From contig NC_087390.1 in assembly GCF_963675165.1 (NCBI RefSeq), positions 2,370,001-2,434,000 on the forward strand: 64,000 nt of DNA, in the 5' to 3' direction. The notes under the pieces are model-generated. The model was not told where the DNA came from and searched no databases. It saw nothing but the letters and a program-made list of their open reading frames with translations. Source of the stretch: Halichondria panicea (taxonomy: Eukaryota; Porifera; Demospongiae; Suberitida; Halichondriidae). The position numbers and the translations under genes were made by a program. Shown piece after piece: positions 542 to 58,403 of the stretch (its first letter is position 1; every line of letters starts with the position of its first letter).

Positions 542-3500
542 ATGATCGAGCATACATTCACGGATAGAATTACAATGGACTCCTTTCTTCGGTCGAGGCT
601 TCCGTCGGTGAGTTGGCTTGTTTGCTTTATATATGTACATGGTATGTACACTACTGACCTACAACTTATAGTTCTTGTAAAACAATCAGGTTACTATTTT
701 TTATATGAATTCCTTTGTCTGTATAATTATAACAATTTGTCAAATGCAATGTCCTGTTCCAGTAAATGTAGTCATACAAGAGATCAGGAGTGTAAAGTTT
801 TGCTTAATTCATTCAAGTTACCCACATGTGACTATAATTAACCTTGTACTGTTGTAGGAAGTTTCTTGAACATGAGCTACACCAATGCTTGTCATGCCCC
901 ATACATGCGTAGCTGAATTTATAGGCTGATTGTTTTACATGCCCACACAATTGAATATTCCAGAAGCCAGGTTGTGTGCCATACCGTAATCAGCTGGCTA
1001 TTTTTAGAAATTGCATGTTCATTACTTGTGATGGTTCATCTTGCATGGCTTCCATGGTTGTTTTCAGTGGTTAATTTGTCTTGTCATGTTTGTCTTATCA
1101 TGTTGCACCACAAGGGTGTTGCCAAATCATTATAGACTCTGTGCAATCATGTTAGCAATTTAGAAGAAATCTTATTATTTCTTCATCTGGAAACGCTCTC
1201 CTCAATGGACACTTTGCAGTCACCCTATTTGCTTCTCATGATCAGTAGCAAGTGGACAAACATGAACTGCACACCAATCTGCTTTGATTCATAATCTTTT
1301 ACCCCTTCAGTAGTTACTGATCTCATTGAGACCCAAACAAACCTCTTGAATAAGAGTTCAAAATGTCTGCTTATTTTTGCGCTTAGCTTGACTCGTGAAA
1401 ATCTACTGAGTAGAATACTGTATAGCGGGTAATTTTCCGGGGGAGGGGAGTATCCAGTTGGCTTGTGGTTTTCCTGGTCGACTCTCTGAGCACGAATATT
1501 TTACCCACGAATGAAGCAACCTTGACTACATTTACCTGCAGTGCAAGCAGCAACCATGAAAATAATATCCACAAATATTTTGTTCCCTAGAAATTACCCG
1601 CTATACGGTAGTGCTTTCTATACAGTCATATGAAGCTTGATAATAGTATGCTACCTAAAATGTGACGCTATAAATTGCTGTGCTTTAATAGAGACTATAA
1701 GTACATGTATTATGGATTACATGTATTGAGCAGTTATAATGTACAATTGTAAGCTGCACTTGTTTCTCAAATAATAATTGTACTAACAGGACAATTATTG
1801 CTGTTTCAGCTTCAAGATGGATCCTCCAGTGGTTGTATCCAGTTTATACTGTCAGTGCTGCTCACCAAGGGAGTTTCCAGGTGAGATACTGCATTGTGAA
1901 CATAGAAAATCTAAAAAGCGACCTCTGACCGGTTAGGGATCGAGTACAAAGATCGATACATGCACCTCATTAACAGTAGTGTACGATGCAATGTAATTCA
2001 TGTTATAGTTGTGACACATGCACCAGTGCCACATTGGATATATTGGCTCAGTAGTGACTTAGGCCCGAGGGCCGCAGGCCTCGAGGGCAAAGGCACTACT
2101 GAGCCAATATATCCAATGTTGCATTCCTTGTGCATTCCTTTCCGTGTACACATCACTCCTTTTATAGGACAACTAGTTTCAACTACTTGTGGTGGCTGTG
2201 GAATGCTCCAGACGCATAAAAAACGTTTTCTGCCTACCACTGAATCTGTTTAACAGTGTTATACTATAAAAGGGACCGTTTCAGGTTACTGGGTGGAGGG
2301 TGGGCTTTACGTAACTTCAGCCATACTATGCCAGTATCTAGATAGTGGCACAGTTCAAGGCTTGACCTGTGCCATATGGCAGATATTGGCACAGTGTTTC
2401 CTTTGATCTGCCCACTCAAAATGCAACAAGTACCGTTACTAGAATGTTTTGCGAGCACCAAACGATATACAAACTTTGCAAGGGTTGTGATCAATTTATA
2501 AAATATTTCAAAACCTACTGGTATTTACACACTATCCTTGCCAGAACGCAATGTTTACACAAAATATCAATTTTTCCGCTGATTTCGTTATTCCTAAAGG
2601 TTTTTTGCCCCCAAAGTATTCTATATATCTGATGTGTAACCCCTGTGTTTTGATATCTATACTGATACTGAGTGGTATAATTGTAAAACCAAATCCTCCC
2701 CCAGTTTCCCATACAAGTCTATGGTCCCACGGATAAAATATCAATATGGTTTTTCATTTCACTCCCCCAAACCACACACAGCATTCAGTCTGAAATGGAT
2801 GAATCCAATGGTCATCTTATTGGAGCACATGGGTACTGCACTCAGGTAAGCATGCACCCCTCTACACTTCTGTCAATATATAGCCCTGGCTTCTTGCCTG
2901 CCTGCATGTGTGTAAGGATGGCCTTATTATGCATGTAGATCATGACTCTAGGGGAAGGCCATTTGGCAGCAGAAAGAAGGAGGTGCACCGGTTGCTGTAC
3001 TATACGTTATTACCAGCAGGATGCTGTGCATGTACTCGGATCAGGGTCATGGGACTTCGTAGTCTAAGCTAGAGTGCATGCATGTCAGTCACTGTGATGA
3101 TTATATTATGAAGACCCAATCATTGCCCCTGCCCACACACACACACATACACACACGTACACAGGAGCTAGTTAACTTGCTACTGACTGGGGTGGCAGTT
3201 TCTAATGTCTTTGACGGGGAGGTGGACATGGGCAGTAAAGGAAAAGAAAAGGTTAGAGAATGAATCACTAGCTTCCACTAATAACCCCATGGTGTAATAT
3301 CCTGTGTGACTTTACCGGTTGATTACTGTGATTACTGTACCTACAGTTCGTCACTTAGTATGGAACTTTCTGTTTATTGTGATGCGCATTATTCTGTCAC
3401 AATTTAAAAGTGACCTAAACTGGTTTCGGGTTTTCAGGGAGTGGTACATGAACTGTCAACAGTATAAAGGTTATTGGGGTATAGTACATTATGATAATCA

Positions 3501-5261
3501 AGAGTTCATTAGGAAGAGTACTAGTACGTCATGATCACAAAGCAAAAACAACAGAAAGGCAATGAATAACATTCACCACTAAAACTAGTTTTTAATTGCA
3601 CAATATACGACAGCAGTTATGACGCAGAACTTCTATAGTTTTAAGTGTATAGTCGTGTACTCTTCTTTATGATATTCATAGTTTAATGATGACAGCTGTT
3701 TTAAAAACATGTTTATTTCTTTTACTATTACTACCCAGAGAATTAGATCCCTTTCAACGAATTGACACACAACATAATTATGAATTTCTTTGTTGCTATT
3801 TACCAATGTAGCTACATTTTATTAAATCATCACCTTATTTCTCTACCATCCAGCTAGTCCTTCGAGGTCTAAGCAAACAGAGTGAGATCGGATTGTTATC
3901 ACTATTTGAGCATTATCAGTCATGCATGGTGAGTTCGTGTGGTCCTGTTATTAACACACCAGTACTCCCTCATACCAACGTCTTGGACCACGCATCAACC
4001 CACCCTCAATACTACCTCACTTAAGCATATTTTCCCCCAGTCCCCTATCACTCCCTGCGTATAGGTGTATACCCTAATGAACACTTGCATTCTCACACCC
4101 ACCCTCCCCCTACAGGTAGGGAGTAATTACAAGGACCCTGTCTGTCCTATATGGGTGATCTGCAGCGAGAGCCACTTCTCAGTGCTGTTCTCTCATGAGA
4201 GATTGCTGCTTGAGAATCTGTAAGTTTTGAAGTCCCTCTGTAACTTTTCTATTCATGGTGAAGTCTATTGAAATGTGCTTGTATACAAGAATTGGCGAAA
4301 GAATCATTGGTATTCGAAATATTATGTGTATAGTAAATTGTTCGACCGTACTGTTTGTTGTCTATTGTATATTTATACAGCAGTACAATGGTTCAATCAT
4401 TCCTTACCAATTTAAGTCTTCATGCACATACAGGAGAATCCAACAGAGATTTGACTTACATTAATACGATGGTTTGGCTAACCAGGACGAGGCCATACGA
4501 CTGACTATAGGTACATTGAGAGATGTGCCAACTTCAGCTAATGTAATAGATACTCACAGAGACAATGCAGAGAGGAGAGGGTCGTTGGTGGAGGATGCAT
4601 TGACCACACCACTGGAACTGTGCATTCGGACTAAGTAAGTTTTAAACCTGTTATGCACTACCGTAAAAACTGGATTATTAGCGCTTACTCGACTATAAGC
4701 GTATCTTTATTTTAAGTGCATGCTCAACTGCAGGCTCGAATTGAAGCGCTTTTCCAATTTTGAAATGCCACTGCATTTTACAATTGAACTATGAGCTAGT
4801 TATAGCTTGTACAGTGCATGATAGCTATATATAGCTGGTGATATCCATCCGGAACTGAGGACTCTCTGGGCATGCTGTTACCTTGTCTGATCATGCTGAG
4901 ACATGGATGAGGTCCTTTTATTCCAAGTTCCTGGTCAATATGAATGTTTTTTAAATGAACTGTAAAATGAACTTTAAATAATAGATCCAGTTAGGGTTGC
5001 CTGCATGCTTGCCTTGCTTGCTCACTTACTAGCCAGCTTGCGAGTCAGCTCTCATCACAGAGACATCCGGTTGCTGGGTGGGGCTCGAAATGACTGCATT
5101 ATAGGCGCATTCTCGAATATAAGCGTATAGTGCTCTGCTATTGACCCTAAAAGCGCATGCGCTAATAATCCAGGTTCTACTGTATTATATAAGCGTTTGT
5201 ATCGTGCTGCAGGTGGAGGAGTGTCACTGTGAGCTGGAATGAATCAGAACCAATTTTGTAG
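542..5261 (+). CDS. MINDY4: MINDY4 (FAM188B)-like deubiquitinase, 3' half, with an in-frame stop
   Basis: Eight exons with GT-AG borders and matching phases: 542-607, 1810-1880, 2782-2845, 3165-3251, 3854-3928, 4116-4219, 4434-4634, 5213-5261. Together they read about 238 codons of the C-terminal half of the MINDY catalytic domain. Hallmarks are [11 protein letters not shown] then ELVNLLLTG and AVSNVF (exons 3-4), GLLSLFEHY (exon 5), [15 protein letters not shown] with the expected catalytic His codon at 4173-4175 (exon 6), DGLANQDE and LELCIRTK (exon 7), and a C-terminus WNESEPIL. These match MINDY-4 better than MINDY-3. MINDY enzymes are cysteine proteases that trim Lys48-linked polyubiquitin; the exon with the nucleophilic Cys would lie left of the window. 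Oddity: exon 7 has TAA at 4462-4464, where relatives have an aromatic residue, about 70 codons before the normal end. The downstream frame and last splice site are otherwise intact, so this is a very recent null allele, a sequencing error or a young pseudogene. TRAF-A follows 0.6 kb later on the same strand. Confidence 0.85.
1416..1610. mobile_element. MITE, TACCGTATAGCGGG family, copy 1
   Basis: About 195 bp with terminal inverted repeats (left TACTGTATAGCGGGTAATTT, right its near complement ending TATACGGTA). It begins and ends in TA, suggesting TA target duplication. It lies in a MINDY4 intron. Related elements are at 51090, 51432 and 56886 and a one-ended copy at 46082. Confidence 0.75.
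2031..2119. repeat. Hairpin with GC-rich loop
   Basis: Perfect 26-bp arms (2031-2056 and 2094-2119) beginning ACATTGGATATATTGGC, around a 37-bp centre rich in CCCGAGGGCC. It sits in a MINDY4 intron. The same plan (AT-rich arms, CCCGAGGG centre) recurs at 63347-63461, suggesting a foldback element family. Confidence 0.75.
4659..5184. mobile_element. Tc1/pogo-type MITE in the last MINDY4 intron
   Basis: 526-bp element; left end TACCGTAAAAACTGGATTAT, right end the complement of TACAGTAGAACCTGGATTAT, with TA at both borders. Internal sub-repeats (ACTCGACTATAAGCGTAT and its variant) flank the centre. The CAGTAGAACC end resembles pogo/Tigger-type termini. No transposase is seen. It fills nearly the whole intron between exons 7 and 8. 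Confidence 0.8.
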
Positions 5262-5869: not shown

Positions 5870-7149
5870 ATGAGTACACTAGTGTGTGTAAGCTGTCAAG
5901 AGTACGTGTTCCACGATCCCTACCAATGTGACTGTGGAGATAGACTGTGTGGCAAGTGTTACAATTCCTATGTTGAGAGGTAAGACTGCAGGTAAGACTA
6001 CAGTATTAACTATAATGCACCTATCAATGCAAGCCCTTACTACACCCCAGTCCCTTCAACCTCCGCCTAGTTGGGCAGGCAATAGTGCAGTGGGGTTTGT
6101 CTGAGCTTTATTAGTAAAACCTAACCCTAGGGGCGGGGGACGTTTGTAATGTACAAATGTACATGTACCATAGAAAAAATTAATGTGTTCCACTTCTGAG
6201 TGCATGGCGCATCTTTTAGAAACCCTAAAAATTGCATTCAACCCAGCTGGCGTTTAAATTATATGCACTACAGCTAGTGTAGTGGACACCGTCTAGTGCA
6301 GTCTCTTAGAACTCGGGTAGTTTTGCACCAGCTCCAATCGAAAATAGGGTCTGGAGAACTTATACTCGCAAGCCACTCCTTTTCTCTGATTGGACGGGGG
6401 CTGGAGAAAAAGGGACTGGTGACTCTGGGCTACAGCTTCTGTCTCTACCAGAATTTGGGTAGAGATTATTTATTGGTTCTTCTACGTGATCCAAACATTG
6501 CGTGAGGTAGTAGAATTGCGTAGCCTGCAACAACTGAAGGCATGCGGGCTTCTTAGCTACAAATTGAGAATGGATGCTAGTGCTAGAAAAGAGAAGACTG
6601 ATTAAGTAATAACGACATCAGGCATTCAGCAGGATAGTCATCTAAGAGACCAGCAAAGATTAGCTGTGTTTCAGTTTTATATGATGAGAACTGGCAGCAG
6701 AAAGTCAGTGTGTTATTGGTTGCCCAAGGCTTTTGATATAAACCTGTACAATTAACTAATTTTTCTGCATGCAGGGTGAATCCGGGAAACTCAAATAATG
6801 GGTAATGATCGACCATGATTGTTGTTAAAAACTAAAAGTTCAAGTCTAAAATTAATGGCTGCATGTCGGCAGAGCCTTGCAGCTCTCTTCTCACTCTTGC
6901 AGCTACCAATAGCTAGCGTTTTAGTACAGAGCTAACTGAGTAGCAACACTCGGTGAACAAGTTTTGCTACATACTCTTCTGAAAAGGATGCAGTGGCATT
7001 CCAAGTAAGCAAAACTAGGCATAACTAGAGAACGAAGCATTATTTTGCAAATCCACAAATTGAAATCCAAGAAAACATGACTAGAAGTCTATAAAAAAAC
7101 TCTTACTTACACTTCATTGATCTTTGAGGAGCTGTAGCAGTCTACACAG

Positions 7150-7184
<35 letters not shown>

Positions 7185-9471
7185 ATCGTATGTGTTTGTG
7201 GTTAGTATGGAATTTATATCTGTATTTGTCTTTTTCGTTATTGTTTCCTGTCTGTTGATCACACTTTGTGTTCTAACTCATGGTACACTTTTACTGTTTT
7301 ATAAAAAAGTTGTTAGCCTGCCTCATCTTGTTCAATCCTAGAGTAGCTCTATACAGTATGCCTCGCTTGCACATGTGCATCGAGGTATGATTATACCTAT
7401 AATACTTTTAAAGTGAAGCAAACATGGCGAAAGGTATTAGTACAGCGCAGCTTGCAACACTCGTTGTCCCAAGAGTATAGTGGGGCTTTGCATTGATAGG
7501 TGCATTACTACACAACCATTAGTAAGTTTATTTACGATATGTGTCATTTTCTGCAGAGGCCAGAAGAAGTTCATTTGTTCATCTTGTAATGAAGAGAACA
7601 TTGTGGCCAACTGTTTCCGAGACAAGGCAGTGGAGTACGAGCTTCGGAACACCACCCTCAAGTGCCTGAACCAATCCTGTCCCTGGGAGGGAGAGAGCAG
7701 GTTCTATCAGGTAATTACAGATTACATGCCTTATTGATAATCGTATTCACAAAGTAGTGGGACTGAACCAGTCCCATTCGTCCCATTCAGTGTAATGTAT
7801 GTACCAAGAAGCAATAAATAGAGCAACTTCCAGTGGTAGTCAATAATTATAGCTATACAGGGAATATCTTGACAACTATTTGAAAGGGCATTACAAGAAG
7901 TGTCTAGTAGGAATCATAGTTCACTGATCTGTTTTGCCTAGAATGTTGTGTGAACCACTTGTTTAGTGTCTCAGTGTCTGTGTTGGTGGTGAACTATTGG
8001 ATTGATGTCTTGTCTTGTTGCCAGTTTGTTGTTTACATGTGTCTGTTTTCTGTAGGAGCATAAGAATTCCTGCAAGTTTGGAGCGGTACAATGTCCCAAC
8101 TCAATATACGGCTGTAAAGAGGAACTGATTAGGAGTCAATTACAGGACCACCTCAGCAATAAATGCAACTGCAACCCGATCACTTGTCGATGGTGTGAAC
8201 AACACACCCTCAATGAAGACGTAAGTTATTTGTGCTTCTTTAAGAGACACTATTATAATAGCTGCATGCATAGAACTCCCAACTAATCATCACGATTCCC
8301 AAACACACAGATTCACATTCAGAAGGAGTGTGAGATGGCACTAGACTACTGTCCCAATGGATGTGGGGAAAGGTTACCTAGGAGAGAGGTCAGTTCTGAT
8401 CGATGTCATTTGATAAATTGCCTTTTTAGTACATTTTTCAAACATCATTTCCTGTGTTATAGTGACATGAATAATTAAAATTGATAGTTATGCAGTTTGT
8501 TTAGTTAATGATCTTTACCCACTCTCTCCACAGATGCTCAAGCATACTAAAACAGTGTGCACTCACCAAGTAAGAGAATGCGACTACAAGGACTTGGGGT
8601 GCACCTACAAGGTATGTTCACACAGCATTTATTCACTTCTCAACTTATATAATAATGCACTCATGTAATTATGTGATCTAATGTACTCGCTTAGTTATAT
8701 ACTCTTATTTGTCTGTAGGGTACCATCAAGGACCTAACGAAGTATGCGAAGGAGTACCCCGCATATCACAACCAACTACTGAAAATGGCCAACAAAGAAA
8801 TGAAGCAATCTCTGGACCACCAAATTGCCTTATTAGACAACAAAACAGACGATTTGAAATCTGAAATTAGCAAGATTAGGTCTGAGGTGCAGTCACGACT
8901 GCAACCAGTAACGGATGCTGTGGTAAAAGCTGAGTCAGCAATTACCCAACTACAAGATGGACTCAGTGAAGTATCTCTGCTATTGCAAACACTTCAAGCA
9001 GCCAGTTACGATGGAACATTCATTTGGAAGATCCCCGAAGTCACTAGGAGAAGACAAGAAGCTAGAAGTGGGAAAACCGTCTCTCTGTATTCTGCTCCAT
9101 TCTATACGAGTCGCCATGGATACAAGCTCTGTCTAAGGCTCTACTTGAACGGCGATGGTACTGGAAAGGGCACTCACTTGTCGTTCTTTATCACCCTAAT
9201 GCGAGGAGAGTACGATGCCCTCCTCCCCTGGCCGTTCAGACAGGCAGTCACTCTGACCCTGGTGGATCAGAACAAGCAGCGAGACATTGTCCAGTCGTTC
9301 CGTCCTGAACCAACCTCCTCATCATTCCAGAGACCACGCAATGAGATGAATGTTGCCTCAGGCTGTCCCACATTCGCCCTCGTCTCTGTCCTTGACAACG
9401 TCTCCTACGTCAAGGATGATACCTTGTTCCTCAAATGCAAGGTTAACACCACTGGACTGACCAATGAATGA
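5870..9471 (+). CDS. TRAF-like RING/zinc-finger/MATH protein, copy A (445 aa)
   Basis: Six exons: 5870-5979, 7557-7710, 8056-8220, 8311-8388, 8534-8611, 8719-9471. Domains: RING at about residues 6-47 (C6, C9, C22, D24, C27, C30, C44, C47), five TRAF-type zinc fingers at about 73-212, a coiled coil at about 214-290, and a TRAF-C/MATH domain at about 292-440 with YDGTFIWKIP, FYTSRHGYKLCLRLYLNGDG, MRGEYDALLPWPF, SFQRPRNEMNVASGCPTF and YVKDDTLFLKC. The MATH signature is TRAF2/3-like. TRAFs are cytoplasmic trimeric adaptors and RING E3 ligases that pass receptor signals to NF-kB and MAP-kinase pathways. Oddities: Asp replaces the canonical RING His (D24), and the fifth finger has Tyr204 where copies B, C and E have His. 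Intron 1 is 1.6 kb and filled by repeats, against 63-299 bp in the other copies. The start was chosen by alignment with the other copies. Subgroup with copy C. Confidence 0.93.
6815..7400. repeat. Interspersed repeat inside TRAF-A intron 1
   Basis: Closely matches 17675-18112 (shared blocks: CCATGATTGTTGTTAAAAAC, the GCCTTGCAGCTCTCTTCTCA block, GTAGCAGTCTACACAGACAC), including a (CA)n tract at 7149-7174 and an end with a short imperfect palindrome CCTCGCTTG...CATCGAGG. A related, more decayed copy in reverse orientation seems to lie at about 56286-56640. Origin unknown; no coding capacity. Confidence 0.65.
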
Positions 9472-11305: not shown

Positions 11306-12577
11306 TAGCTGTGTCTGTTGCCTGGTTACCAAGATTTGCTAGACTATTAGTAGGGTAGAGTATAATTCAGCGGTGCTGTATGTAGTCTGTATTGTACTGG
11401 CTGGCAAGAATTTGGTCACTCTATATGCACCGATAACTCACCAGAATGGAGAGGATCGCTGGGGATCATCATCTGGTTGATTAATGAAGCTTTATATTCA
11501 AAGTAACCAGAGAAAAACATTTGCTTTCAGTCTCCAATGACCGCGCAACACCAGCTAGAAGTTTACATAGTTGTCATAAGCTAGGCCGGCAAGTGGTACA
11601 TGCACGCCGCCGGTGACCGTGTCCAACCTCGTCTGTTTAAGGACCATAGTGGTAGCAAATGTGCAGCTGTTGTGTCCGGCTATGGTTCTACATATTTATG
11701 CTGCTTTTGTCAGAATCATTGGTCTTGGTTTTGCGGACAACACTTCTCTAAATCTGTGAACGTCCATTGCCTTTTCCCCGCACACATAGATGTTGAATAC
11801 TTCCCCCCTTACCTAATCCCTCCTAACACACACCCACCCACATCTCTCTAGTCCCCACCCCAGCCCTAGCTGATGAGAGGAGGAGGGTCTGGTGTCAGCA
11901 CTAGGGGAGATCTTGTGGAGGGCAGGAGGAGGAAAGAGAGCTGTGGTTGGATTGTAAGTGGGTTGCTCCACATAATTATGTGTGCTGTCATAAATGAGAT
12001 GATGTGCGAAATGAGATGATGTGCGAAATGAGCGTGCAGCTATGAATATCATACAAATATCATATTTATACTTGTTTACTAGTATGATTATACTTACATG
12101 TAGTGTCATTGTTTCCGTGGTATTTTTAGAATGCTCTGTGTGACCTATTTGATTATGCACACACAAGGTGTTGTTTACACATGCAGGTTTATGTCATCAG
12201 TGTTTGTATTAGAAATTATATGGGTTCACCGAACTCATCTCAGCATTTACGACTGGTTGATTAATGAAGCTTTATATTCAAAGGCAGAGACGGGCCCCAG
12301 GAAAGCAATACACACCCACGTACCAGCCTGATTCCATCGCTGAAAGGGTAAGTTCCTGTAGTAACCCTACCGTAACAAAGACATTGATCTTTCTTTGCTA
12401 TGGTGAAAACAAAGCCTTTCCTTTCTGTTTCCATGTCAACATGATCTTTATTTCCCGGGGACATAATTGTCTTCAGTATAACCTACAGTGAAATTTGATT
12501 ATGTCTCATATTTGTCAGGGAAGTTTATAGTGTTGCTAAGTAAACATGTAATTAATTTGTTCTTTCCCCGTATGCAG

Positions 12578-18765: not shown

Positions 18766-19279
18766 TTATTACGCTGTAAGTAAGTCATTAACTAGGTCAT
18801 GTCTTGTCATGTTGCACCACACACTGTTGCTAATTTCACTTGTGAAATTATTCTTATGCAATTATTAGCAACAGGAGTTCAACACGCGAGAGTAATCTGA
18901 TAAACCAACTCGGCGCAGAGAGTCCAACTCCCACACACATTCTGGACTAATCTGTCACTAACACTTGTAATTGTTAGCCATGAATAAAATCAAATGTGGG
19001 CTGGAGGTAGCATGACCTGTATTGCTTGTTGTGTGCAGAGGTTGTGTGTTGCTGATATCATTTTTAACTACGCACCCACTTAAAATGTGACGTAGTGTGA
19101 CATACTTGTACGGAACATGGTTTGTATTACAACTACCATCTCAATGTTCACACAACTACGCTCTTTTTGTTCCTTTTCTCTATCGTAAATGTTTTCCTCG
19201 ATAGATATTTCAATATAATTATCCTGTTAGATGACTATTATACGTGTATGCTGGTCATGCCCCCCTCCCTATACACACA

Positions 19280-22200: not shown

Positions 22201-23520
22201 ATTATACCTAAAAAGCTAGTTTGGGATTTTGCTATATACGATGCCCTTGCTGGACAACTGTTGTGCAAACCGTAATTAATCTGCATAATTTAAGTGCAAA
22301 GTTTTGCTTAATGCATTCAGTTACTGACTGTTTTAGGTAGGAAGCTTCTAGAACATGAACTACACAATGAAAGCCATGCCTTACACATAGCTGTATTCAT
22401 AGCGTGTGTTGTTTGTTGTTTTAAACGCCCACACAATGACCATTCCAGAAGCCTTTATAACGTAGTCAGCTGTTGTCAATGCTGTCAATGTTGTCATGCT
22501 ATTTATGTCAACTTCAATGGTTGTCTTCAGCTCATGTAAAATAATATAAGGCGCGAAGCAACTAATACTGCATCGTCTCTCAGAAAACCTTTGTATAATA
22601 ATAATTATGTATGTATGTCATGCTTCAGGAATGCGGAATTGGGTGTGGCTACATTCGGTTATTACCTCATTCTTGTGCAAACATCTTAGCAGCCATTGCA
22701 GCCATTGCAGCCACACATTTTTTGAATGCCACGTACATTGCCAATTGAAAGAATCACTTCCTGGTTCAGTTTTTGAGAAGGTGGGTATAATTATTGACTA
22801 TGCTGGCCCAGTATCTATAAAGTACGGCCACGTGAGCATGACTATGCTCTTTTTGTTCTTTTCTCTATCAGGAACGCTCTCCTCAATTGACACTTTGCAG
22901 TCACTCTGTTTGCTTCTCATGATCAGTAGCAAGTGCACAATACCGTATAATCTGGTTAGTAAGTGCATGCGCCTATATAGGGAAAGAGCAAGCCTCTTAA
23001 TCTATGCGCTATTAGTTGATGTGCGCTTATTAACCAGTAACAGGAACGCCTTAAGTTGTTGAAGTCCTTCTGTAATTTTCTATTCATGGTGAAATCTATT
23101 GAAATGTGCTTGTATAGAAGAATCGGCCAAAGAGTCATTGGTATTTGAGGTATGTGCTTCTATGGTGTCATTTTGCTATGCTATGCCGGAAATTTTATGG
23201 TTATGTACATGTAGACAATGGCTCTATTCTCCATATTCACATGCAGGAGACTACAAAGGATATTTGACAGCTATAACTTCGATAGTCTGGCTAACCACCA
23301 TACAACTGACTATATATAGGTACGTTGAGAGATGTGCAAACCTCAGCTAATGTACTCCCACATGCAGTGCAGAGGGGAGAGCTAGGGTCGTTGGTGGAGA
23401 TGCATTGACCTCACCACTGGAGCTGTGCATTCGGACTAAGTGAGTGAGAGGTTTTGTGTTGTGTACTATTGTCAGTATGTTTTAGAGGAATACTTCTGTG
23501 AGCTGGAACAGATCTTAAAC
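19280..23520 (+). pseudogene. Scattered MINDY4 exon remnants in segment 2
   Basis: Remnants: exon ELVNLLLTG at 19280-19370 (frame broken); first visible exon at 21744-21802 (premature TAG); exon 7 at about 23247-23440 (several indels; LELCIRTK still legible); last exon at about 23482-23520. The ELVNLLLTG exon lies upstream of the first exon, so the order is scrambled. Confidence 0.7.

Positions 23521-29797: not shown

Positions 29798-29886
<89 letters not shown>
29757..29886. repeat. (CA)n microsatellite, about 130 bp
   Basis: Near-pure CA repeats with one TACACCCACGCACACG interruption. The inverted paralogue has two TG tracts (61515-61567 and 62384-62455) separated by 0.8 kb. Confidence 0.95.
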
Positions 29887-29887
<1 letters not shown>

Positions 29888-38100: not shown

Positions 38101-41041
38101 ATGAGTTCGAGTACACTATCGTGTGTAAGCTGTAAAGAGTATGTGTTCCACGATCCATACCAGTGTGACTGTGGAGATAGACTGTGTGGCAAGTGCTACA
38201 CCTCCTATGTTGAAAGGTACGTATATAAATAAGGCTGCATTATTACTTATTAAAGCATTTCATGGTGAGTTGGAGTAGATAATTATACTGTCATTGTCAC
38301 CAACTTATTATTATAGAGGCCAGAAAAAGTTCATCTGTTTGTCCTGCGGTGAAGAGAACATTGTGGCCAACTGTTTCCGAGACAAGGCAGTGGAGTACGA
38401 GCTTCGGAACACCACCCTCAAGTGCCTGAACCAGTCCTGTCCCTGGGAGGGGGAGAGCAGGTTCTATCAGGTAAACACAGTGCATGCGATGAGCCTAATA
38501 CTATTGTAGTTGGTTAGCTCCTTGACTAGACCTTAATTATTATGCCGAGACTGAGCTGACATATTCTTGATCCTATGCAGTGGCATAGGAAGTGGGGTGG
38601 CTCCAGGGGCTGGAGCCCCCCTTGTTGGAGAGCAATGTTTAGCTTGAACTGTTGAGTTAGCTTAGCTATAGCAAGCTAGCTGCAGCCAGGTAGCTATTAA
38701 ACTGTAAATTACGTGATTATTTCAATTATGGGCTATGTTTCGAAAGTCTAAAGTGCAAAGTGATAGATCTACCACAGAGATGATGATTGATCTATGAGCC
38801 TAGTCTCGAATTCCAGCCTCTTTCAGTCTTTGCAAGAATACGAAGCTGGGGAGAGCGTGGCCAGACTACTATGAGCCCCCCTTCCAAAAAATCTTCCTAC
38901 GCCACTGCTATGTAAACCTGAGAACCAGCATTTACATGCATAGATACAAGTACAACGCGTGTACCCGGAATCAGTGGCTTCCAGTGGTATTCATGGATTT
39001 CCTGAACTTTAATACTAGGGTATTTTGACAACAGTACCAGGTAGTTGTAATAGCTCCTTCCTCTATGAATAGCTATAGTTTACTGATCCTGATCTTTTGT
39101 CTAGCATTAATATTTGTAGGCTCTGTGTTGTCTGTTGATGATATTAGTGGCCAAAATATTTGAGTCTGTGTCGGTGTTGTCTCACGCCAGTTTGTTGTTC
39201 ACATGTGTCTATTGTCTGTGTTTCTGCAGGAGCATAAGAAGTCCTGCAAGTTTGGATCAGTACAATGCACCAACTCAATATACGGCTGTAAAGAAGAACT
39301 AATTAGGAGTCAATTACAGGACCACCTCAACAATAAATGCAACTTCAACCCGATCACTTGTCGATGGTGTGGACAACGCACCCTCAATGAAGATGTAAGT
39401 TATTCACTGTGCTTCATTAATCTCAAAGATATAATGCTATAGCCGTTTAGAACTCCAAACTAATCATCACGATTCCCAAACACACAGGTTCACATTCAGA
39501 AAGAGTGTGAGATGGCACTAGACTACTGCCCCAATGGATGTGGGGAAAGGTTACCTAGGAGAGAGGTCAGTTATAATGTCAGAGGTTAATTCTTGTGATG
39601 TGGTCAGAAATTCATTGCCTTTGTTAGTACATTTTCAAGAATGTCATTTCCTGTTTTAGTGCCAGAACACCCCATGAATAAATTGTTTAGTTGATGACCT
39701 TTACTCACTCCCCCACAGATGGTAAAGCATACTAAAACAGTATGCACTCACCAAGTAAGGGAATGCGACTACAAGGACTTGGGGTGCACTTACAAGGTAT
39801 GTTTACACACATTAATTACCTGAGGCGTGTGAGCGTCGTTTGGTTTGTTTTTACCCGAGGCCATGCCACAGCCAGCGGGTACAGTAGTCGTCTGATTTGT
39901 TTGTCGGTTTGTGACACATGAGTCTGCTTACCTAGATTCCATAGCGCAGCATGGATAGTTTTAACAATGACAGATTTCAATGTTAAAGCTTTGTCGTTGT
40001 GTATAAAAGCGAGCAAAAAGTTAAGAAGCCTGAGCTTGCACGTTGCCTAGCTCTACACGCGACCTTTATTCGAGGTAGATCTAAATATTTGCAGCTGAAG
40101 TGATCCTTTACCAGTCTCTCTATTAAAAGTAGAATTGTAGGTTATTGCTTCTTTACTATTGTGTAACTGAACACTCCTCTGGTTTTTATAAACCTATTTA
40201 TTTATGTCAACAGCTGATGGTTAGCAATTACGTGCTCGTAAATGATGTCATTGCTTAGTTACAAATTAACGCTCTTATTGGTCTGCAGGGTACCATCAAG
40301 GACCTAACGAAACATGCAAAAGAGTACCCCGCATATCACAATCAACTACTGAAAATGGCCAACAAAGAAATGAAGCAATCTCTTGAGCACCAAATTGCCT
40401 TAATAGATACCAAAACAGACGATTTGAAATCTGAAATTAGCAAAATTCGGTCTGAGGTGCAGTCACGACTGCAACCAGTAACAGATGCTGTGGTCAAAGC
40501 TGAGTCAGCAATTATCCAACTACAAGATGGACTCAGTGAGGTATCTCTGCTATTACAAACACTTCAAGCAGCCAGTTACGATGGAACATTCATTTGGAAG
40601 ATCCCCGAAGTCACTAGGAGAAGACAAGAAGCTAGAACTGGGAAAACTGTATCTCTGTATTCTGCTCCATTCTATACAAGTCGCCATGGATACAAGCTCT
40701 GCCTGAGACTCTACATGAATGGCGATGGTTCTGGGAAGGGCACTCACTTGTCGTTCTTTATTACCCTAATGCGAGGAGAGTACGATGCCCTCCTCCCCTG
40801 GCCGTTCAGACAGGCAGTCACTCTGACCTTGGTGGACCAGAATAAGCAGCGAGACATTGTCCAGTCGTTCCGTCCTGAACCAACGTCCTCATCATTCCAG
40901 AGACCACGCAATGAGATGAATGTTGCCTCAGGCTGTCCCACATTTGCTCTCGTCTCTGTCCTTGACAACGTCTCCTACGTCAAGGACGATACCTTGTTCC
41001 TTAAATGCAAGGTTAACACCACTGGACTGACCAATGAATGA
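38101..41041 (+). CDS. TRAF-like RING/zinc-finger/MATH protein, copy C (447 aa)
   Basis: Six exons: 38101-38216, 38317-38470, 39230-39394, 39488-39565, 39719-39796, 40289-41041. Two extra codons at the N-terminus (MSSSTLSCVSC) otherwise leave the usual layout: RING with Asp in place of the fourth ligand His, five zinc fingers with all expected ligands, coiled coil, MATH domain ending KCKVNTTGLTNE. Closest to copy A in the C-terminal exon. Intron 2 contains a 330-bp MITE (38578-38907). The start ATG is the only one in frame after the TATA box. Predicted TRAF-type signalling adaptor and E3 ligase. Confidence 0.92.
38578..38907. mobile_element. CAGTGGCGTAGGAAG-type MITE in TRAF-C intron 2
   Basis: 330 bp, ends CAGTGGCATAGGAAG and complement, flanked by CTATG on both sides. 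Next to each end is a GC-rich GGGGCTGGAGCCCCCC palindrome or its remnant. Second copy at 42284-42440. Confidence 0.8.
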
Positions 41042-48439: not shown

Positions 48440-50810
48440 ATGTCTACACTAGTGTGTGTAAGCTGCCAAGAGTATGCGTTCCACGATCCCTACCAATGTG
48501 ACTGTGGAGACAGACTTTGCAGCAAGTGTTACACCGGCTATGCTGAGAGGTATGAAACAGTAGAACTGCATACATTTTTAATAGTCATTGCAGATTGAGA
48601 TTCTAATAAATAACTTTCATGGATGACTTTCATGTTGTTATTAATAGCTTATAATTCTGTAGCGGCCACAAGACATTTATTTGCTCGTCCTGTGATGAAG
48701 AGAACATTGTGACCAACTGTTTTCGAGACAAGGCAGTGGAGTACGAGCTTCGGAACACCACCCTCAAGTGCCTGAACCAGTCCTGTCCCTGGGAGGGGGA
48801 GAGCAGGTTCTATCAGGTTTGAGTTGATAATTATGCATCATGATGATAACTGCAACAAGCAATAATAGAGTTGTATCACAAATATACTAGCTGTCTGTCA
48901 ACATGATGCCGCTTTGAACACACTATGTTATAGCTAGACATAACGTGTGTTGGTACTAGTGCTCTTAGAGGACGGCACAGAGTGTACCCTAATAATTCAA
49001 CATTGTCCTACAGAAAATTATCATGACTGGGAAGGTACAATTCACGATTTGATCAGACATGACATGGTATATGCCTTTCGAAAACTGGTGAGAATTAAAT
49101 TATTGTCATGCGTTCAATCAAGGAGCTGACCAACTAAAATAGCACTGATATTAGCTATCATCAGCTAGGGTTGCTCATTCTAGCTGTCATCAATGAACTG
49201 CTCTTTAGATTGTTTGTATGGGACACGTCATGCGAGTAAACAATGAATATGATTATAATTTATACTGTATCCCATACTCAACCGAAGAAGCAGAAATCAC
49301 TGTATTATTTTGTTGTTCTATTTTCTGTGTAGGAGCATAATAAATCCTGTAAGTATATGGAGCAGTACAATGCCCCAACTTGATATACGGCTGTAAAGAA
49401 GAACTGATTAGGAGTCAATTACAGGACCACCTAAACAATAAATGCAACTTCAACCCGATCACTTGTCGATGGTGTGGACAACACACCCTCAATGAAGACG
49501 TAAGTTATGTGTTTCAGACACTCTTGGGCAATTTTCGTTGTTCTAATACAACAGACACTCCAGTGATTTAATATTACATTTGTTCTAAATATCCGGACAA
49601 TACCTTGAAAAGTTGAGTTCCATTCATAGACGGCAAGTAAGACTTAGATAGAGTGCTGCAGTTAGATAGCTTTGAGTAGCTAGTTTTAGATAGCTAGTGC
49701 AACTATTATAATTATTCCGGACACTTCACATACTCTATAAAAATCTGTTCCAATTATACCTGGACAATTTCCAAAATAATTTTAATTTTTGCTGTCCAAT
49801 AAATTAACTAATTATCCGCCCACACCCTGCCCATGTCGTGTGTTATTGCTGAGTGTAATCAGAAGCTAATTGCTTGAGCTGCACCGCGCCTGTCGTACCT
49901 CCTCTGAATACACTTTAGATATATCTACGGTACAACTATTACATGTACGTACTATTGAAATCCAAACTATGCGTCACGGTTCCCAAACACACAGATTCAT
50001 GTTCAAAAAGAGTGTGAGATGGCACTAGACTACTGCCCCAATGGGTGTGGAGAGAGGTTACCTAGGAGAGAGGTGAGTCATGGATATCATGCACATTTCT
50101 ATGATTTCCTGCTGATGTGACCAAATTTAATATTATTTTATTTTTATTATTAATGATCTTTACCCACTCCCTACAGATGCTCAAGCATACTAGGACAGTA
50201 TGCACTCACCAAGTAAGAGAATGTGACTACAAAGACTTGGGGTGCACCTATAAGGTATATGTTCGCACATATGTACAGTAATTTTTCATATTCACTAAGC
50301 TTTATGTATTTTGTAATTACTCGTACAATTATATGCTCTTATTCATCTGTAGGGTGGTACCATCAAAGATAGAGTGCTGCAGTTAGATAGCTTTGAGTAG
50401 CTAGTTTAAGATAGCTAGTGCAACTATTATAATTATTCCGGACACTTCACATACTCTATAAAAATCTGTAGTCACGACTACAACCAGTAACAGATGCTGT
50501 GGTTAAAGCTGAGTCAGCAATTATCCAACTACAAGATGGACTCAGGAGGTATCTCTGCTATTGCAAACACTTCAAGCTGCCAGTTATGATGGAACATTCA
50601 TTTAGATCCCCGAAGTATTCGAGATATACCGGAACTAGATCATGATACCGAAACACCCGACTTGAACTCTGAACAATCACCACCACCACCAACTGGCTCG
50701 ACACTAGCAACTCCAAGTGTTCGTCGGTCAGCTCGAGCGACAACCGCTCCAGACTACCTTGTGGACCATTACTAGAAGAAGAAACGAAGCTAGAACTGGG
50801 AAAACTGTAT
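48440..50810 (+). pseudogene. TRAF copy D, inactivated
   Basis: Exons 1 (48440-48549), 2 (48663-48816), 4 (49995-50072) and 5 (50177-50254) are open and spliceable. Exon 3 (49333-49499) is 2 bp too long after TGTAAGT, shifting the frame. Exon 6 starts at 50353, but about 150 bp of coiled-coil coding sequence is replaced by a 98-bp copy of intron 3 sequence (49650-49747), bringing TAG at 50398-50400. Further on a 1-bp loss, a 150-bp foreign insert (50619-50770) and a CTGT repeat destroy the MATH domain. A normal TATA box at -60 to -70 is absent. The RING exon still has C6, C9, C22, D24, C27, C30. Confidence 0.9.
50619..50770 (+). mobile_element. Fragment resembling the C-terminal end of a retrotransposon polyprotein, inserted in TRAF-D exon 6
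   Basis: Open frame of about 50 codons, acidic then proline-rich (SEQSPPPPTG), then RRSARATTAPDYLVDHY and a stop. Such RRS-R-APDYL strings occur near the C-terminal part of LTR-retrotransposon integrase regions. The host sequence CCCGAAGT / ACTAG resumes on either side. No target duplication seen; assignment is by eye. Confidence 0.45.
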
Positions 50811-50811
50811 C

Positions 50812-50842
<31 letters not shown>
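50812..50842. repeat. (CTGT)n microsatellite
   Basis: Seven to eight CTGT units within the former exon 6 of TRAF-D. Confidence 0.9.
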
Positions 50843-52800: not shown

Positions 52801-53105
52801 GTTAGGATTTAAGAGAATGCTGAGAAGTAAGCTCTACTGGTGCTGCCAATGTTTACAACACACACTTGCATTCTCTTTGGCCACAAGCTTAGGAAACCGA
52901 CAATAGAAACACTCTACATATATGGAATGCTTTTATCACATGCGTATATATAGATGCCCTAAAGCTGCATAACCACAGAGTGAAATCAATACCTATACTC
53001 AAATCCTATACCAGTAATTATAAGTTGATACGTATCACCTCTATTCTATTTCCTAGGCGTGTGACATACCTAACCAAAACATCACTGCCCCTTCCCACAC
53101 ACACA

Positions 53106-54060
53106 GGAGTTGGTTAACTTGCTACTAACTGGGGTGGCATGCAGTGTCTAACGTCTTTGACAGGGAGGTGGACCTGGGCAACAAAGGAGGTTAGGGAGTA
53201 GGTCAGAGTTAATTGGGTGCCAACTGATCTGCAAGTATTAATTGATTATTGATTGAACTGCTACAATCTAGACCATTAACTTTGTTAGTGGTTCCTTTGG
53301 AATGGCACATTTATTTGGTAACCATGTTATATATACGGTTTTCTGTTCTATACCGGTGAGTTAACCACTCTCTGAGCTCTAAGTTTAACGAAAATAGTGA
53401 GTTCTCTTTTGATGATTCCATGGTTGAAACCCAATGTATATTCTATGTATCAATTGGTATGTGGCCATGCAGAAGACGCCTATCAATAATAATTTAATTT
53501 TTGTCTATATTACAATTGAGAAGGATACAGGACTCCTATCATTTACTCACGACACCCACCCTCCCCCTACAGGTTGGGAGTAACTACAAGGACCCTGTTT
53601 ACCCTATATGGGTGATCTGCAGCGAGAGCCACTTCTCAGTGCTGTTCTCTCATCAAAGATCGCTGCTTGAGAATCTGTAAGTTTTGAAGTCCTCTGTAAC
53701 TTTTGTATTTATGGTAAAAGCTATGGAAATGTGCTTATATAGAAGAATTGGTGAAAGTATTCAAAATATGTGTATAGTAAATTGTTCGACCGTACTGTTT
53801 TTGTCTATTGTATATATAGTTGTAAGTAGTACAATGGTTCAATCATTCCTAACAATTTAGACCACCGCCTTGGACCACTCATCAATCCCAGCCCACTCTC
53901 AATACAACCTCACATTTGACACTGATTCTCCCTAGCCGGGGCCGCTGCCCCCTATCACGCCCTAATACATGTGCCCTTAATGTGCTTCCCACCCTCCCCC
54001 TACAGGTTGGGAGTAACTACAAAAACCCTGTCTATCCTATATTACTTTTTTTTGAACTTG
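53106..54060 (+). pseudogene. Loose MINDY4 exons upstream of TRAF-E
   Basis: Exon 4 copy at 53107-53190 (ELVNLLLTG, broken by a 5-bp insert). Exon 6 copy at 53573-53676 is intact with acceptor and donor and encodes [20 protein letters not shown] plus FSVLFS. A second, truncated exon 6 copy at 54006-54045. Intervening exons are absent, so no gene is formed. Confidence 0.8.
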
Positions 54061-54344: not shown

Positions 54345-56324
54345 ATGATGAGTACACTATTGTGTGTAAGCTGTCAAGAGTATGTGTTTCACGATCCATA
54401 CCAATGTGATTGTGGAGACAGACTCTGTAGCAAGTGTTACAATTCCTATGTTGAGAGGTAAATCGTTATTCATGATGATGTGTCATTGACTGTCTTCCAC
54501 TATCATTTCATTTTCTGCAGAGCCCAGAAGAAGTTCATCTGTTTATCCTGCAATGAAGAGAACATCGTGGCCAACTGTTTCCGAGACAAGGCAGTGGAGT
54601 ACGAGCTTCGGAACACCACCCTCAAGTGCCTGAACCAGTCCTGTCCCTGGGAGGGGGAGAGCAGGTTCTATCAGGTAATAATGCTACAGTACTGCACAAT
54701 GAGTAATCCTCATTTATAATTACGTGATGTCAGATGCATGCATGCAATGTAATAGTCTCCTTCACTGGCCTCCCCTGAAGAAAAGGCCTGCTACTGACAT
54801 GTGCAAAATTATTGGATATTTTGTCCGTAAAATAATTATAATACTGAATTTAGTGGAAAATATCATTGAAAGTCATACACAGAGTTATATAGCTAGCTAG
54901 CTAGAGACAGAGCTGTAGGTTTGTTGTACAGCCATTTTCTTTCTGATAGAGTCAGTAGCAGTAGTATATAGTAGGCTTTCACCAAAGTTAGTATTAGATG
55001 GCGTGGCCTGTCCATATAGGCTTTTGTCAGCTTTCACTCCGTTCAGACGATTGTCATCCACACTGTTGCTGGCTGTGAGTCTTTTGTTAACGTAGCAAGC
55101 TAAGGGTAGCTGTCAGAATACTATCAGACGGGCTAGAAGCCTTCAATCGAACCTTCTATCTACTTCCTTCAGTCCACGTCCGTTCGTTGTGACGTCATTG
55201 TTTTACTGACCATAAACGTTATCTGAATCCGCCAGATACCGGCGGAAGGTTAGCACATGCGCAAGCAGCAGTCGATACCAGGCCCACTCTTCGAGAAAGT
55301 GCGGCCTGGGATCAAGGCTAGCAATGTACTAGGATCCAATGAATACTTAACTTATGTTGAGGCTATAAAAGTATATCGATGTTGGAAACGCACCACTTTT
55401 GAACAGACCCAGAACCACAAACAGACAGACTACTGTAACCCGTGGCGCCGCGGGTAATAACTTATACATTGTAAGACATGTTTGTTGTTTCTGGGTTTCT
55501 GTAGGAGCATAAGAATTCGTGCAAGTTTGGATCAGTACAATGCACCAACTCAATATACGGCTGTCAAGAAGAACTAATTAGGAGTCAATTACAGGACCAC
55601 CTCAACAATAAATGCAACTTTAACCCGATCACTTGTCGATGGTGTGGACAACACACCCTCAATGAAGACGTAAGTTATTCACTGTGCTTCTTTAAATCCC
55701 CAACTAATGTTTTCCTAATACAACAGGTTCACATTCAGAAGGAGTGTGAGATGGCACTAGACTACTGCCCCAATGGGTGTGGCGAGAGGTTACCCAGGAG
55801 AGAGGTGAGTTATAATATACTCGATCTTATGGCAAGCCATAAAATTAAAACTATACATTCTCTAAAATCCAACAAGAATCGTTATAATTATTGTGAAATA
55901 GGTGAGATAATTATACCATCGTACATTCACGTTGTTAAAATCCCATCGTTCACGCTATCATAAATAGTTCATCGTTTGTAGGCTTCCTTGCACGCTGTCA
56001 AATCGTACACTCACATGCATGTGTATAGAGAGGGAGCCCTGCAAAATAAAATGGCTCCTGCAGGGTTAATGTTTTTAATATTAGCTTTACAGTGACTATA
56101 TGACTCCGTGAGACAGGTGAAAAATGTAAACATGGTTTTGATAGGTGTAAATTAACTTGCCATGCTATCCATTGTGACCAAACTTAGCCTTTTGTTTTAT
56201 CCACTCCCCGAGGAGTGGTTACCTAGGAGAGAAGTCAGTTCTGTTTCAGAGCATTCCGAGCTTCTTGTACAATAATGTAGATCATTATGCCTCGAGGCCG
56301 CACGAGGGATACGGTAAAGCTGAC

Positions 56325-56366
<42 letters not shown>

Positions 56367-58403
56367 AGCTGTAACTGCTCAACGGTTGCAATGCGATGAA
56401 AACTAACAGCTTCTATATATATAGGCTTCTTCTAGCCACGTTCTCTTGGATTGATTCGTGGATTAACAAACTAAAGCTAAAGCTGTTGTAGGTTTCTTCA
56501 GAATCTTTCATAGCATTATCTGTTCGCACAAAGTTTCTATTCAACTTATAAGTTAGTCTTGCACTAAAGCGCTAGTTTTTGTTGGCTACAAGAGTCAGAA
56601 AAGATCTATTAAAGCAGCTAGCTATAGTAGCCATTTGTGAACTCTTTGCAAACACACCCTTTAATTATTCCTGTGGCTGTGGATGTAATGCGCATGTGCA
56701 CTCACCCCCACATGTTACAAAATCCAGTGGCAGAATCAACTTTCTTCTTTTTCTTGAGGTCCTGGTATACCGGTAAGCCACAAAACACAATAATGATACT
56801 AGATAACAATAGATGCAGTACACAAGTCTGGTAACAATAGATACATGCATGTACACAAGTCTGTTTTTCCCAGTTAAAGATAGATATACCGTATAGCGCG
56901 AAATTTTCGAGGCACTTATATTTCGTGGATTGGCCTCTAAAAGCCATTTCGTTGCACAATGTTCGCGGAATGACTGCTTACCGGAAGCCACGCCTTTAAA
57001 TATTTGCATGATAGCAGGTAATTCTTATTAACGAACACTTTTCGTGGACTTAATTTTCGTGTAGAATTCCAACCCACGAAATCCGCGAAAATTAAGCCCC
57101 TCGAAAATTTCGCGCTATACGGTATGCATTGTTTAGATACTATACTGTCCGTGCTTAAATTCTCTTACTCTGTGCCTTTGATAAAGGTTTACTTCCACTG
57201 TTTGGCTACAGGCTATTTGCTTCAGTATCGTTAACTTCATCAAGCCATCAGATAGGCTTCTGTTTCCATTCAGCTCCTCTCCTTGTATAATGACTGTGTG
57301 GAATTCAATTCTGTCAACAATTGCAATCAGCGTAACCTCTTCACCTCTTCTAATACATGTAGTTTTTGAGCGAAAGCAAAACAACAGCGAGATAGCGCAG
57401 CTTGCACCACTTGTTAGTACAATTTCAACCACCTCATTTCCTGTTTTAATGCGTGTATGAAAATACTAAAATGAGGTTGTTTAGTTAATGATCTTTACCA
57501 ACTCCCCATAGATGCTCAAGCATACTAAAACAGTGTGCACTCACCAAGTAAGAGAATGCGACTACAAAGACTTGGGGTGCACTTACAAGGTATGTTTACA
57601 CAGCATTTATTCACTTATGCACTCGTATAATCATAATGTACTTATAGGCTCTTATTTGTCTGCAGGGTACCATCAAAGACCTAACGAAGCATGCAAAGGA
57701 GTACCCCGCATATCACACCCAACTACTGAAAATGGCCAACAAAGAAATGAAGCAATCTCTTGATCACCAAATTGCCTTAATAGACAACAAAACCGATGAT
57801 CTGAAATCTGAAATTATCAAAATTCGATCTGAGCTGCAGTCACGGCTACAACCAGTAACAGATGCTGTGGTAAAAGCTGAGTCAGCAATTATCCAACTAC
57901 AAGATGGACTCAGTGAGGTATCTCTGCTATTACAAACACTTCAAGCTGCCAGTTACGATGGAACATTCATTTGGAAAATCCCCAAAGTCACTAGGAGAAG
58001 ACAAGAAGCTAGAAGTGGGAAAACCGTGTCTCTGTATTCCGCTCCATTCTATACGAGTCGCCATGGATACAAGCTCTGTCTAAGACTATATATGAACGGC
58101 GATGGTACTGGGAAGGGCACTCACTTGTCGTTCTTTATCACCCTAATGCGAGGGGAGTACGATGCCCTCCTCCCCTGGCCATTCATACATGCAGTCACTC
58201 TGACCCTGGTGGACCAGAACAAGCAGCGAGACATTATCCAGTCGTTCCGTCCTGAACCAACCTCCTCATCATTCCAGAGACCACGAAATGAGATGAATGT
58301 TGCCTCAGGCTGTCCCACATTTGCCCTCGTCTCAGTCCTGGACAATGTCTCCTATGTCAAGGACGATACCTTTTTCCTTAAATGCAAGGTGACCAATGAA
58401 TAA
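54345..58403 (+). CDS. TRAF-like RING/zinc-finger/MATH protein, copy E (440-441 aa)
   Basis: Six exons: 54345-54457 (two adjacent ATGs, the second at 54348 matching the other copies), 54521-54674, 55505-55669, 55727-55804, 57512-57589, 57666-58403. RING has Asp in place of the fourth-ligand His; five zinc fingers intact; coiled coil and MATH domain complete, ending KCKVTNE like copy B. Exon 6 and its 3' flank are almost identical to copy B up to 58489, where the inverted segment begins. Intron 1 is only 63 bp; intron 4 (1.7 kb) holds a fragment of exon 4 (about 56211-56238), a GT repeat and a MITE. Private changes in the MATH domain: PKV for PEV, IIQ for IVQ, F for L in DDTLFLKC. Predicted TRAF-type adaptor and E3 ligase. 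Confidence 0.92.
56333..56365. repeat. (GT)n microsatellite in TRAF-E intron 4
   Basis: About 16 GT units, inside a decayed reverse copy of the repeat found at 6815-7400. Confidence 0.9.
56886..57124. mobile_element. MITE, TACCGTATAGCGGG family, copy 4 (TRAF-E intron 4)
   Basis: 239 bp; ends TACCGTATAGCGCGAAATTT and exact complement, TA borders. Confidence 0.87.

What the first reader, a model, noticed from the sequence alone, without database searches (positions are those of the whole stretch)
542..58403. Tandem array of a MINDY4-type deubiquitinase / TRAF-type RING protein pair
MINDY4 sequence lies before TRAF-A, and MINDY4 exon remnants lie again before TRAF-B, TRAF-C and TRAF-E. Several duplicated segments carry both a TRAF exon and MINDY4 exons. 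The simplest reading is repeated duplication of a two-gene unit in which TRAF copies survived and MINDY4 copies decayed. A ubiquitin-removing enzyme physically linked to a ubiquitin ligase family suggests a co-regulated ubiquitin module, and selection for TRAF dosage or diversity.
Basis: partly seen in the sequence, partly recalled or inferred. Interest (0 to 1): 0.8.

Follow-up and report, generated by a model that had tools for sequence, protein, structure and literature searches.

The report
TRAF gene array with MINDY4 relics
In an animal genome, a deubiquitinase gene and the immune-signalling TRAF gene right behind it were duplicated together many times; most TRAF copies stayed intact while the extra deubiquitinase copies lost their front half or decayed, so this looks like a hitch-hiking neighbour and not a dedicated two-enzyme module.

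Summary
The window is the middle of a ~195 kb array (C14:2.305-2.501 Mb) of 18 TRAF units. MINDY4 exons precede TRAF-A, -B, -C and -E as described, not TRAF-D. The head unit, 54 kb upstream of the window, holds the only MINDY4 found with both catalytic Cys and His exons; its stop codon is 287 bp before a TRAF start. The other MINDY4 copies are 5'-truncated or fragmentary; their 3' exons carry an old signature of purifying selection that is weaker on recent branches. TRAF copies are mostly open (12 of 17 forward units), constrained (pN/pS 0.14), and 17 of 19 TRAF first exons have a TATA motif, in 5' flanks of several unrelated classes. So the duplication history is supported; the 'co-regulated ubiquitin module' is not: 129 of 150 scored TRAF hits lie outside the array, where the MINDY4 search found one stray exon. 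Unexpectedly, four downstream copies and one outlying copy have half the MATH domain replaced by two Death-domain exons; the joint is in frame in three of the four tested: predicted TRAF-Death-Death chimeras. No expression data; host identity not established.

The parts
1807..5258 (+). Unit U6: MINDY4 3' half, exons M5-M11 (1807-1872, 2789-2845, 3162-3251, 3854-3928, 4116-4217, 4435-4635, 5214-5258); in-frame TAA in M10; no N-terminus and no Cys exon
5870..9471 (+). TRAF-A (U6): six exons, RING-like, TRAF zinc fingers, coiled-coil-like region, MATH; open frame
11859..12347 (+). MINDY4 M3 (with stops) and M4 fragment between TRAF-A and TRAF-B
19278..23440 (+). MINDY4 remnants before TRAF-B: M7 (19278-19361, stop), M4 fragment (20211-20246), M10 (23248-23440, stop and split match)
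24826..27222 (+). TRAF-B (U7), six exons, open frame, C-terminus a few residues shorter
29457..29999 (+). MINDY4 M2 (catalytic Cys exon, GGPCG intact) and M3, isolated from the rest of the gene
34962..35190 (+). MINDY4 M10 and M11 remnants before TRAF-C
38101..41041 (+). TRAF-C (U8), six exons, open frame; ATG two codons upstream of the position used by the other units
48440..50815 (+). TRAF-D (U9): T1-T5 present, last exon broken with stops; no forward MINDY4 exon upstream
53104..54041 (+). MINDY4 remnants before TRAF-E: M7 (53104-53188, split by a frame break), M9 (53573-53674, His exon), M9 fragment (54006-54041)
54348..58403 (+). TRAF-E (U10), six exons, open frame
61401..62760 (-). Inverted MINDY4 M3 (61401-61502) and M2 (62674-62760, stop) after TRAF-E

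Best explanation
This is the middle of a large TRAF array that began with a TRAF2/3-like gene lying 0.3 kb behind the MINDY4 gene. Shown: adjacency in the head unit; tandem repeats with TRAF last exons 5-18 kb apart; retention of MINDY4 exons that rises towards the TRAF; TRAF constraint; TATA motifs before TRAF first exons. Inferred: MINDY4 was duplicated only as a passenger. Early duplicates were whole enough to be under selection; later recombination, perhaps in the (CA)n tract before exon M3, cut off the N-terminus and Cys exon, and the 3' remnants are now decaying. TRAF copies persist because each is a complete gene with its own promoter; recombination and conversion keep their coding parts alike while their 5' flanks differ, so the likely pay-off is more TRAF output, or differently switched TRAF output, in innate signalling, not a paired DUB/E3 switch.
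For: 27 of 28 PF13898 exon hits in one locus, interleaved with TRAFs. Head unit: PF13898 E 8e-101, Cys and His regions aligned to MINDY-3. Stop-to-ATG gap 287 bp in U1, 187-608 bp in U3-U6. Repeat structure. Exon retention over 18 units at E 1e-3: M0 1, M0b 1, M1 4 (3 partial), M2 3, M3 9, M4 5, M5 7, M6 6, M7 10, M8 7, M9 10, M10 12, M11 7; TRAF exons 16-18. Broken MINDY4 exons: U2 M10 2-bp loss, U3 and U5 M4 stop, U6 M10 stop. TRAF 12 of 17 open, pN/pS 0.14 over 136 pairs. TATAAA[AG] 52-150 bp upstream in 17 of 19 TRAF first exons against 5.2% of random 130-bp pieces. M3 preceded by (CA)n in the five copies aligned; all 12 M3 matches in the genome lie in this locus.
Against: MINDY4 3' exons in U2-U6 still show more silent change than neutral on recent branches (23 silent of 43, expected about 26%), and U4 and U5 keep M6-M11 open with good splice sites, so some truncated copies may have been used until recently. 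MINDY4 and TRAF divergence disagree between the same units, so the history is mosaic, not a clean series of unit duplications. No expression data; own promoters are inferred from a motif.
Confidence: 0.8

Rival explanations
1. Co-regulated ubiquitin module: MINDY4 and TRAF are kept side by side because removing and adding ubiquitin must be controlled together.
For: Head unit has both genes, 287 bp apart. MINDY-family enzymes cleave K48 links and some prefer K48-K63 branches (PMC11638074, passages seen); TRAFs build K63 chains (recalled).
Against: One whole MINDY4 against 12 open TRAFs; U12 and U13 TRAFs are open without MINDY4; 129 of 150 scored TRAF hits lie outside the array, where the MINDY4 search found one fragment; TATA motifs of their own. 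In PMC11638074 MINDY4 is reported as less active on K48 branches off K63 chains.
Confidence: 0.06
2. The truncated MINDY4 copies (M5-M11, His lobe without the Cys exon) are still used, as catalytically dead ubiquitin binders or as part of chimeric transcripts.
For: Stem branch of U2/U4/U6: 22 silent, 6 replacement; tips 23 silent, 19 replacement, 1 nonsense, against about 26% silent under neutrality. The introns between M6 and M8 are close to unalignable between three MINDY4 lineages while the exons are conserved. U2-U4 exons differ at 20 of 631 sites, introns at 8-11%.
Against: Constraint is weaker on tips than on the stem (Fisher p 0.04); U3-U5 exons (8 of 638) are not clearly less divergent than introns (2.1%); U2, U3, U5 and U6 carry frame breaks or stops somewhere in M4-M10; the fragment lacks the front of the catalytic domain; I found no start exon.
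Confidence: 0.12
3. MINDY4 3' exons are retained because they hold a control element of the TRAF gene.
For: Exons nearest the TRAF are retained most. The M9-M11 stretch, introns included, stays 82-90% alike between U1, U2, U3 and U5, unlike the introns further upstream.
Against: The last 150 bp or so before the TRAF ATG fall into unrelated classes; U12 and U13 TRAFs are open without MINDY4 exons; the pattern is expected from breakpoints and conversion alone.
Confidence: 0.09
4. Assembly artefact: haplotypes or collapsed repeats laid out in tandem.
For: 2500 N bases in the 224 kb joined stretch (not located); tandem arrays are hard to assemble.
Against: Long matches between units are mostly 78-97% identical with offsets and insertions, part of the MINDY4 introns is unalignable, and units carry distinct relics. 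A few stretches are 98-100% alike.
Confidence: 0.03

Closest known systems
MINDY-3/MINDY-4 deubiquitinases (Pfam PF13898)
   Same: Head gene matches in two stretches, profile end included, with GGPCG Cys exon, SESHF His exon and the WKSVTVSWNGSEPIL end
   Different: The downstream copies lack the N-terminus and the Cys exon; M2 occurs elsewhere only as one isolated forward exon and one inverted exon
TRAF2/3/5-type TNF receptor associated factors
   Same: MATH best match TRAF3, E 6.6e-66; TRAF zinc fingers; N-terminus aligns to TRAF5/TRAF6 RING-zinc-finger structures
   Different: RING not recognised by Pfam and has Asp where the usual His stands (family pattern recalled); 17 forward units in one array; four of these and one outlying copy run into Death domains instead of a full MATH
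Tandem arrays with a passenger neighbour gene (segmental tandem duplication with pseudogenisation; recalled, general knowledge)
   Same: One gene open in most units, neighbour truncated and decaying
   Different: Passenger copies passed through a long constrained phase; 5' flanks of the surviving gene differ between units while coding parts stayed alike
TRADD-TRAF2 coupling (Death-domain adaptor that binds the TRAF MATH domain; PMC8195603, passages seen)
   Same: The chimeric copies bring the same module types together
   Different: Here Death domains are predicted in the TRAF chain itself and half the MATH is gone

Membership tests
MINDY-3/4 deubiquitinase (head gene, C14:2304.7-2313.4 kb) | PF13898 conserved catalytic domain | tested here: met
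   337.8 bits, E 8e-101 on my spliced prediction; start exon not identified and a stretch between M4 and M5 may be missing
MINDY-3/4 deubiquitinase (head gene) | Catalytic Cys and His motifs (which residues are catalytic is recalled) | tested here: met
   GGPCG and SESHF align to GGPCA and SETHL of MINDY-3 chain 9rmd
MINDY-3/4 deubiquitinase (window copies) | Complete open catalytic domain | tested here: not met
   The copies of U6, U7, U8 and U10 each lack exons, most of them, or carry stops
MINDY-3/4 deubiquitinase | K48-chain cleavage | not testable with these tools
   needs an enzyme assay
TRAF | TRAF-type MATH domain | tested here: met
   PF21355 E 3e-48 and TRAF3 structures E 7e-66 for U1
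TRAF | TRAF zinc fingers | tested here: met
   PF02176 E 6e-13
TRAF | RING able to act as E3 ligase | tested here: inconclusive
   No Pfam RING hit; residues 6-126 and 13-156 align to TRAF5/TRAF6 N-terminal structures; C-G-D-R where C-G-H-R is usual (recalled)
TRAF | Trimerisation through the coiled coil | not testable with these tools
   the TRAF3 alignment reaches into the region before MATH, no more
Co-regulated DUB/E3 gene pair | Both genes intact in most units | tested here: not met
   1 whole MINDY4 against 12 open TRAFs
Co-regulated DUB/E3 gene pair | Adjacency conserved in other species | not tested
   no other animal genome was available to the searches

The most novel reading that the evidence does not exclude
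The array works as a factory that keeps the TRAF protein nearly constant, swaps its promoters (two units even carry two first exons with different 5' flanks), and has made a new protein type in which half of MATH is replaced by two Death domains, a single-chain fusion of what TRAF2 and TRADD do as partners.
Probability: 0.4. Interest if true: 0.62.

Novelty: new member of a known kind. Interest (0 to 1): 0.42.

Why it matters
It gives a clear case in which adjacency between a deubiquitinase and a ligase-type adaptor looks like a by-product of duplication, with the parent pair, a breakpoint candidate and a graded series of relics on one contig. If the TRAF-Death chimeras are expressed, they show directly how innate adaptors gain new outputs in a tandem array, and the different TATA-bearing flanks make promoter divergence after duplication testable in one locus.

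Tried and rejected
Fusion of MINDY4 and TRAF into one gene: rejected for the head unit, because after ...CIRTK the next exon WKSVTVSWNGSEPIL ends in a stop 287 bp before the TRAF ATG.

Processed (retro) copies: rejected, introns are retained.

Exon M3 as a dispersed repeat: rejected, 12 matches, all in this locus.

MINDY4 beside the closest TRAFs elsewhere (C3:3.012-3.032 Mb) or at C14:2.73-2.74 Mb: none at E 0.01.

Host as sponge: a silicatein fragment gave 28 matches; the four best, the only ones I inspected, have Cys in the active-site motif as in cathepsins. The sponge label is neither supported nor excluded.

Pairwise exon/intron figures for U2-U6 and U4-U6 were dropped, because M5 and M11 were misaligned there. 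M10 of U2 and U3 and most M5 copies were left out of the pN/pS (gapless full-length exons only) and put back.

Papers: eight searches (the last two with no paper) listed no title or abstract start reporting MINDY4-TRAF linkage or a TRAF-Death fusion; the library is open-licence only and listings were capped. Passages were seen in PMC11638074, PMC8195603, PMC6321704 and PMC7654579; none was read in full.
Full report
What was checked. The window is C14:2370001-2434000 of a 131 Mb assembly in 39 contigs. A Pfam search for the MINDY-3/4 domain over this genome gave 28 exon matches (42 of 42 candidates scored): 27 on C14 between 2308026 and 2496386 and one on C10. A search with the TRAF last exon scored 150 of 317 candidates; 21 of the 150 lie in C14:2.31-2.52 Mb and 129 elsewhere. 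A TRAF zinc-finger search scored 150 of 677 candidates, on many contigs. These are hits, not gene counts, but the genome has a large TRAF repertoire and one MINDY4 locus.

Anatomy. I joined the 224 kb around the window and mapped exons of the head unit. The head unit, U1 (C14:2304.7-2316.1 kb), has MINDY4 with its whole catalytic region and an open TRAF. The last MINDY4 exons read ...LELCIRTK and WKSVTVSWNGSEPIL followed by TAG; the TRAF ATG is 287 bp further. The spliced MINDY4 prediction scores 337.8 bits against PF13898, and its Cys and His regions align to MINDY-3. I did not identify its start exon, and a stretch between exons M4 and M5 may be missing from my model. The spliced TRAF prediction has TRAF zinc fingers and a MATH domain closest to TRAF3.

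The array. There are 18 TRAF units (U1-U18, U17 being inverted pieces) from 2313 to 2501 kb. Over the 18 units, exon M0 is found in 1, M0b in 1, M1 in 4 (3 partial), M2 in 3, M3 in 9, M4 in 5, M5 in 7, M6 in 6, M7 in 10, M8 in 7, M9 in 10, M10 in 12, M11 in 7, and TRAF exons in 16 to 18 (E up to 1e-3). Short exons are under-counted. Retention rises towards the TRAF.

Truncation. The Cys exon M2 occurs in U1, isolated in U8, and inverted before U11. U2, U3 and U5 have only the last 14 of 37 residues of M1 and no M2. Exon M3 follows a (CA)n tract in the five copies aligned, and its 12 matches are all here, which makes the tract a candidate breakpoint; this is inference.

Selection. Among U1-U6, pN/pS is 0.18 for MINDY4 M5-M11 (gapless exons only) and 0.13 for TRAF; over all units TRAF is 0.14 (136 pairs). 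The MINDY4 introns between M6 and M8 are close to unalignable between U1, the U2/U4/U6 group and the U3/U5 group, but the M9-M11 stretch is 82-90% alike, introns included, between U1, U2, U3 and U5; the region is a mosaic. Changes placed on branches by parsimony: U2/U4/U6 stem 22 silent, 6 replacement; U1 branch 25 and 13; tips U2-U6 23 silent, 19 replacement, 1 nonsense. Neutral expectation is about 26% silent. So the copies were constrained for long and are less so now (stem against tips, Fisher p 0.044). U2 has a 2-bp loss and U6 a stop in M10; U3 and U5 share a stop in M4. The test uses few changes and ignores gene conversion, which is visible: U4 and U5 share a stretch of M10. U2-U4 exons differ at 20 of 631 sites and introns at 8-11%; U3-U5 exons at 8 of 638 and introns at 2.1%, which is no clear difference.

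TRAF copies. Twelve of 17 forward units give an open RING-to-MATH frame (U1-U8, U10-U13). In the last 150 bp before the ATG, matches of 80 bp or so link only some units: U1-U18; U2-U4; U3-U5-U15b; U6-U14a; U7-U15a-U16; U9-U12-U13. Yet TATAAA[AG] lies 52-150 bp before the ATG in 17 of 19 first exons, against 5.2% of random 130-bp pieces of the locus (the copies are related, so the p-value is not literal). U14 and U15 each have two first exons with different flanks. MINDY4 and TRAF distances between the same units disagree: U2-U4 dS is 0.11 for MINDY4 and 0.18 for TRAF, U2-U3 0.42 and 0.10. The array was probably made by unequal crossing-over and conversion.

What it is. The simplest account is a TRAF array seeded by a MINDY4-TRAF neighbour pair, with MINDY4 as passenger. 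A dedicated module is not supported, because TRAFs persist without MINDY4 both inside the array (U12, U13) and outside it. On C10 a 149-bp stretch with exon M9, identical to U5, lies near other TRAF-like exons; I read it as a recent stray copy.

Beyond the finding. In U14, U15, U16 and U18 the last TRAF exon leaves the MATH sequence at residue 123 of 250, adds about 30 new residues and ends in a splice donor; the next exon is a Death domain (PF00531, E 1.5e-4, 22.2 bits against a cut-off of 22.6) and the one after it a second Death domain (E 3e-8). The T6-Death1 joint is in frame in U14, U15 and U18; U16 has a frame break. Both Death exons occur in five copies, the fifth at C14:2.735 Mb, whose last TRAF exon is also broken. 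Pooled pN/pS of the Death exons is 0.43 over six pairs of four copies. These are predictions without transcripts; U18 also has frame breaks in T1 and T2, U14 a short in-frame loss in T2, and U15 lacks T4.

Noticed in passing
C14:2466683-2468410, 2479485-2481220, 2484682-2485927, 2500676-2502270 (L020-L023), and C14:2733867-2735490 reverse (L029): TRAF copies whose MATH domain is cut at residue 123 of the last exon and followed by two Death-domain exons; T6-Death1 splice in frame in three of the four copies joined.
   Followed up: partly
L027/L028, C3:3020103-3020852 and C3:3024019-3024768: TRAF genes whose MATH part is about 91% identical in DNA to the array while their N-terminal exons are only 37-75% identical in protein: looks like gene conversion between contigs confined to the MATH part.
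   Followed up: partly
C14:2464037/2464884 and 2476679/2477463: Two TRAF first exons in tandem in each of U14 and U15, with different 5' flanks, as for alternative promoters.
   Followed up: no
window 42772-42945: Broken Death-domain-like remnant (48% identity, three stops, E 2.7e-4) between TRAF-C and TRAF-D.
   Followed up: no
C14:2313453-2313495 and about 2316158-2316213 (L011): Short inverted repeats (hairpin-like, AGCCTCGA...TCGAGGCT) in intergenic DNA, resembling small inverted-repeat elements; seen by eye.
   Followed up: no
window 51762-52758; C14:2460963, 2473480, 2493738, 2513490: Matches to a more divergent TRAF type interleaved with the array; weak except the one at 2513490 (68% over the last exon).
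   Followed up: no
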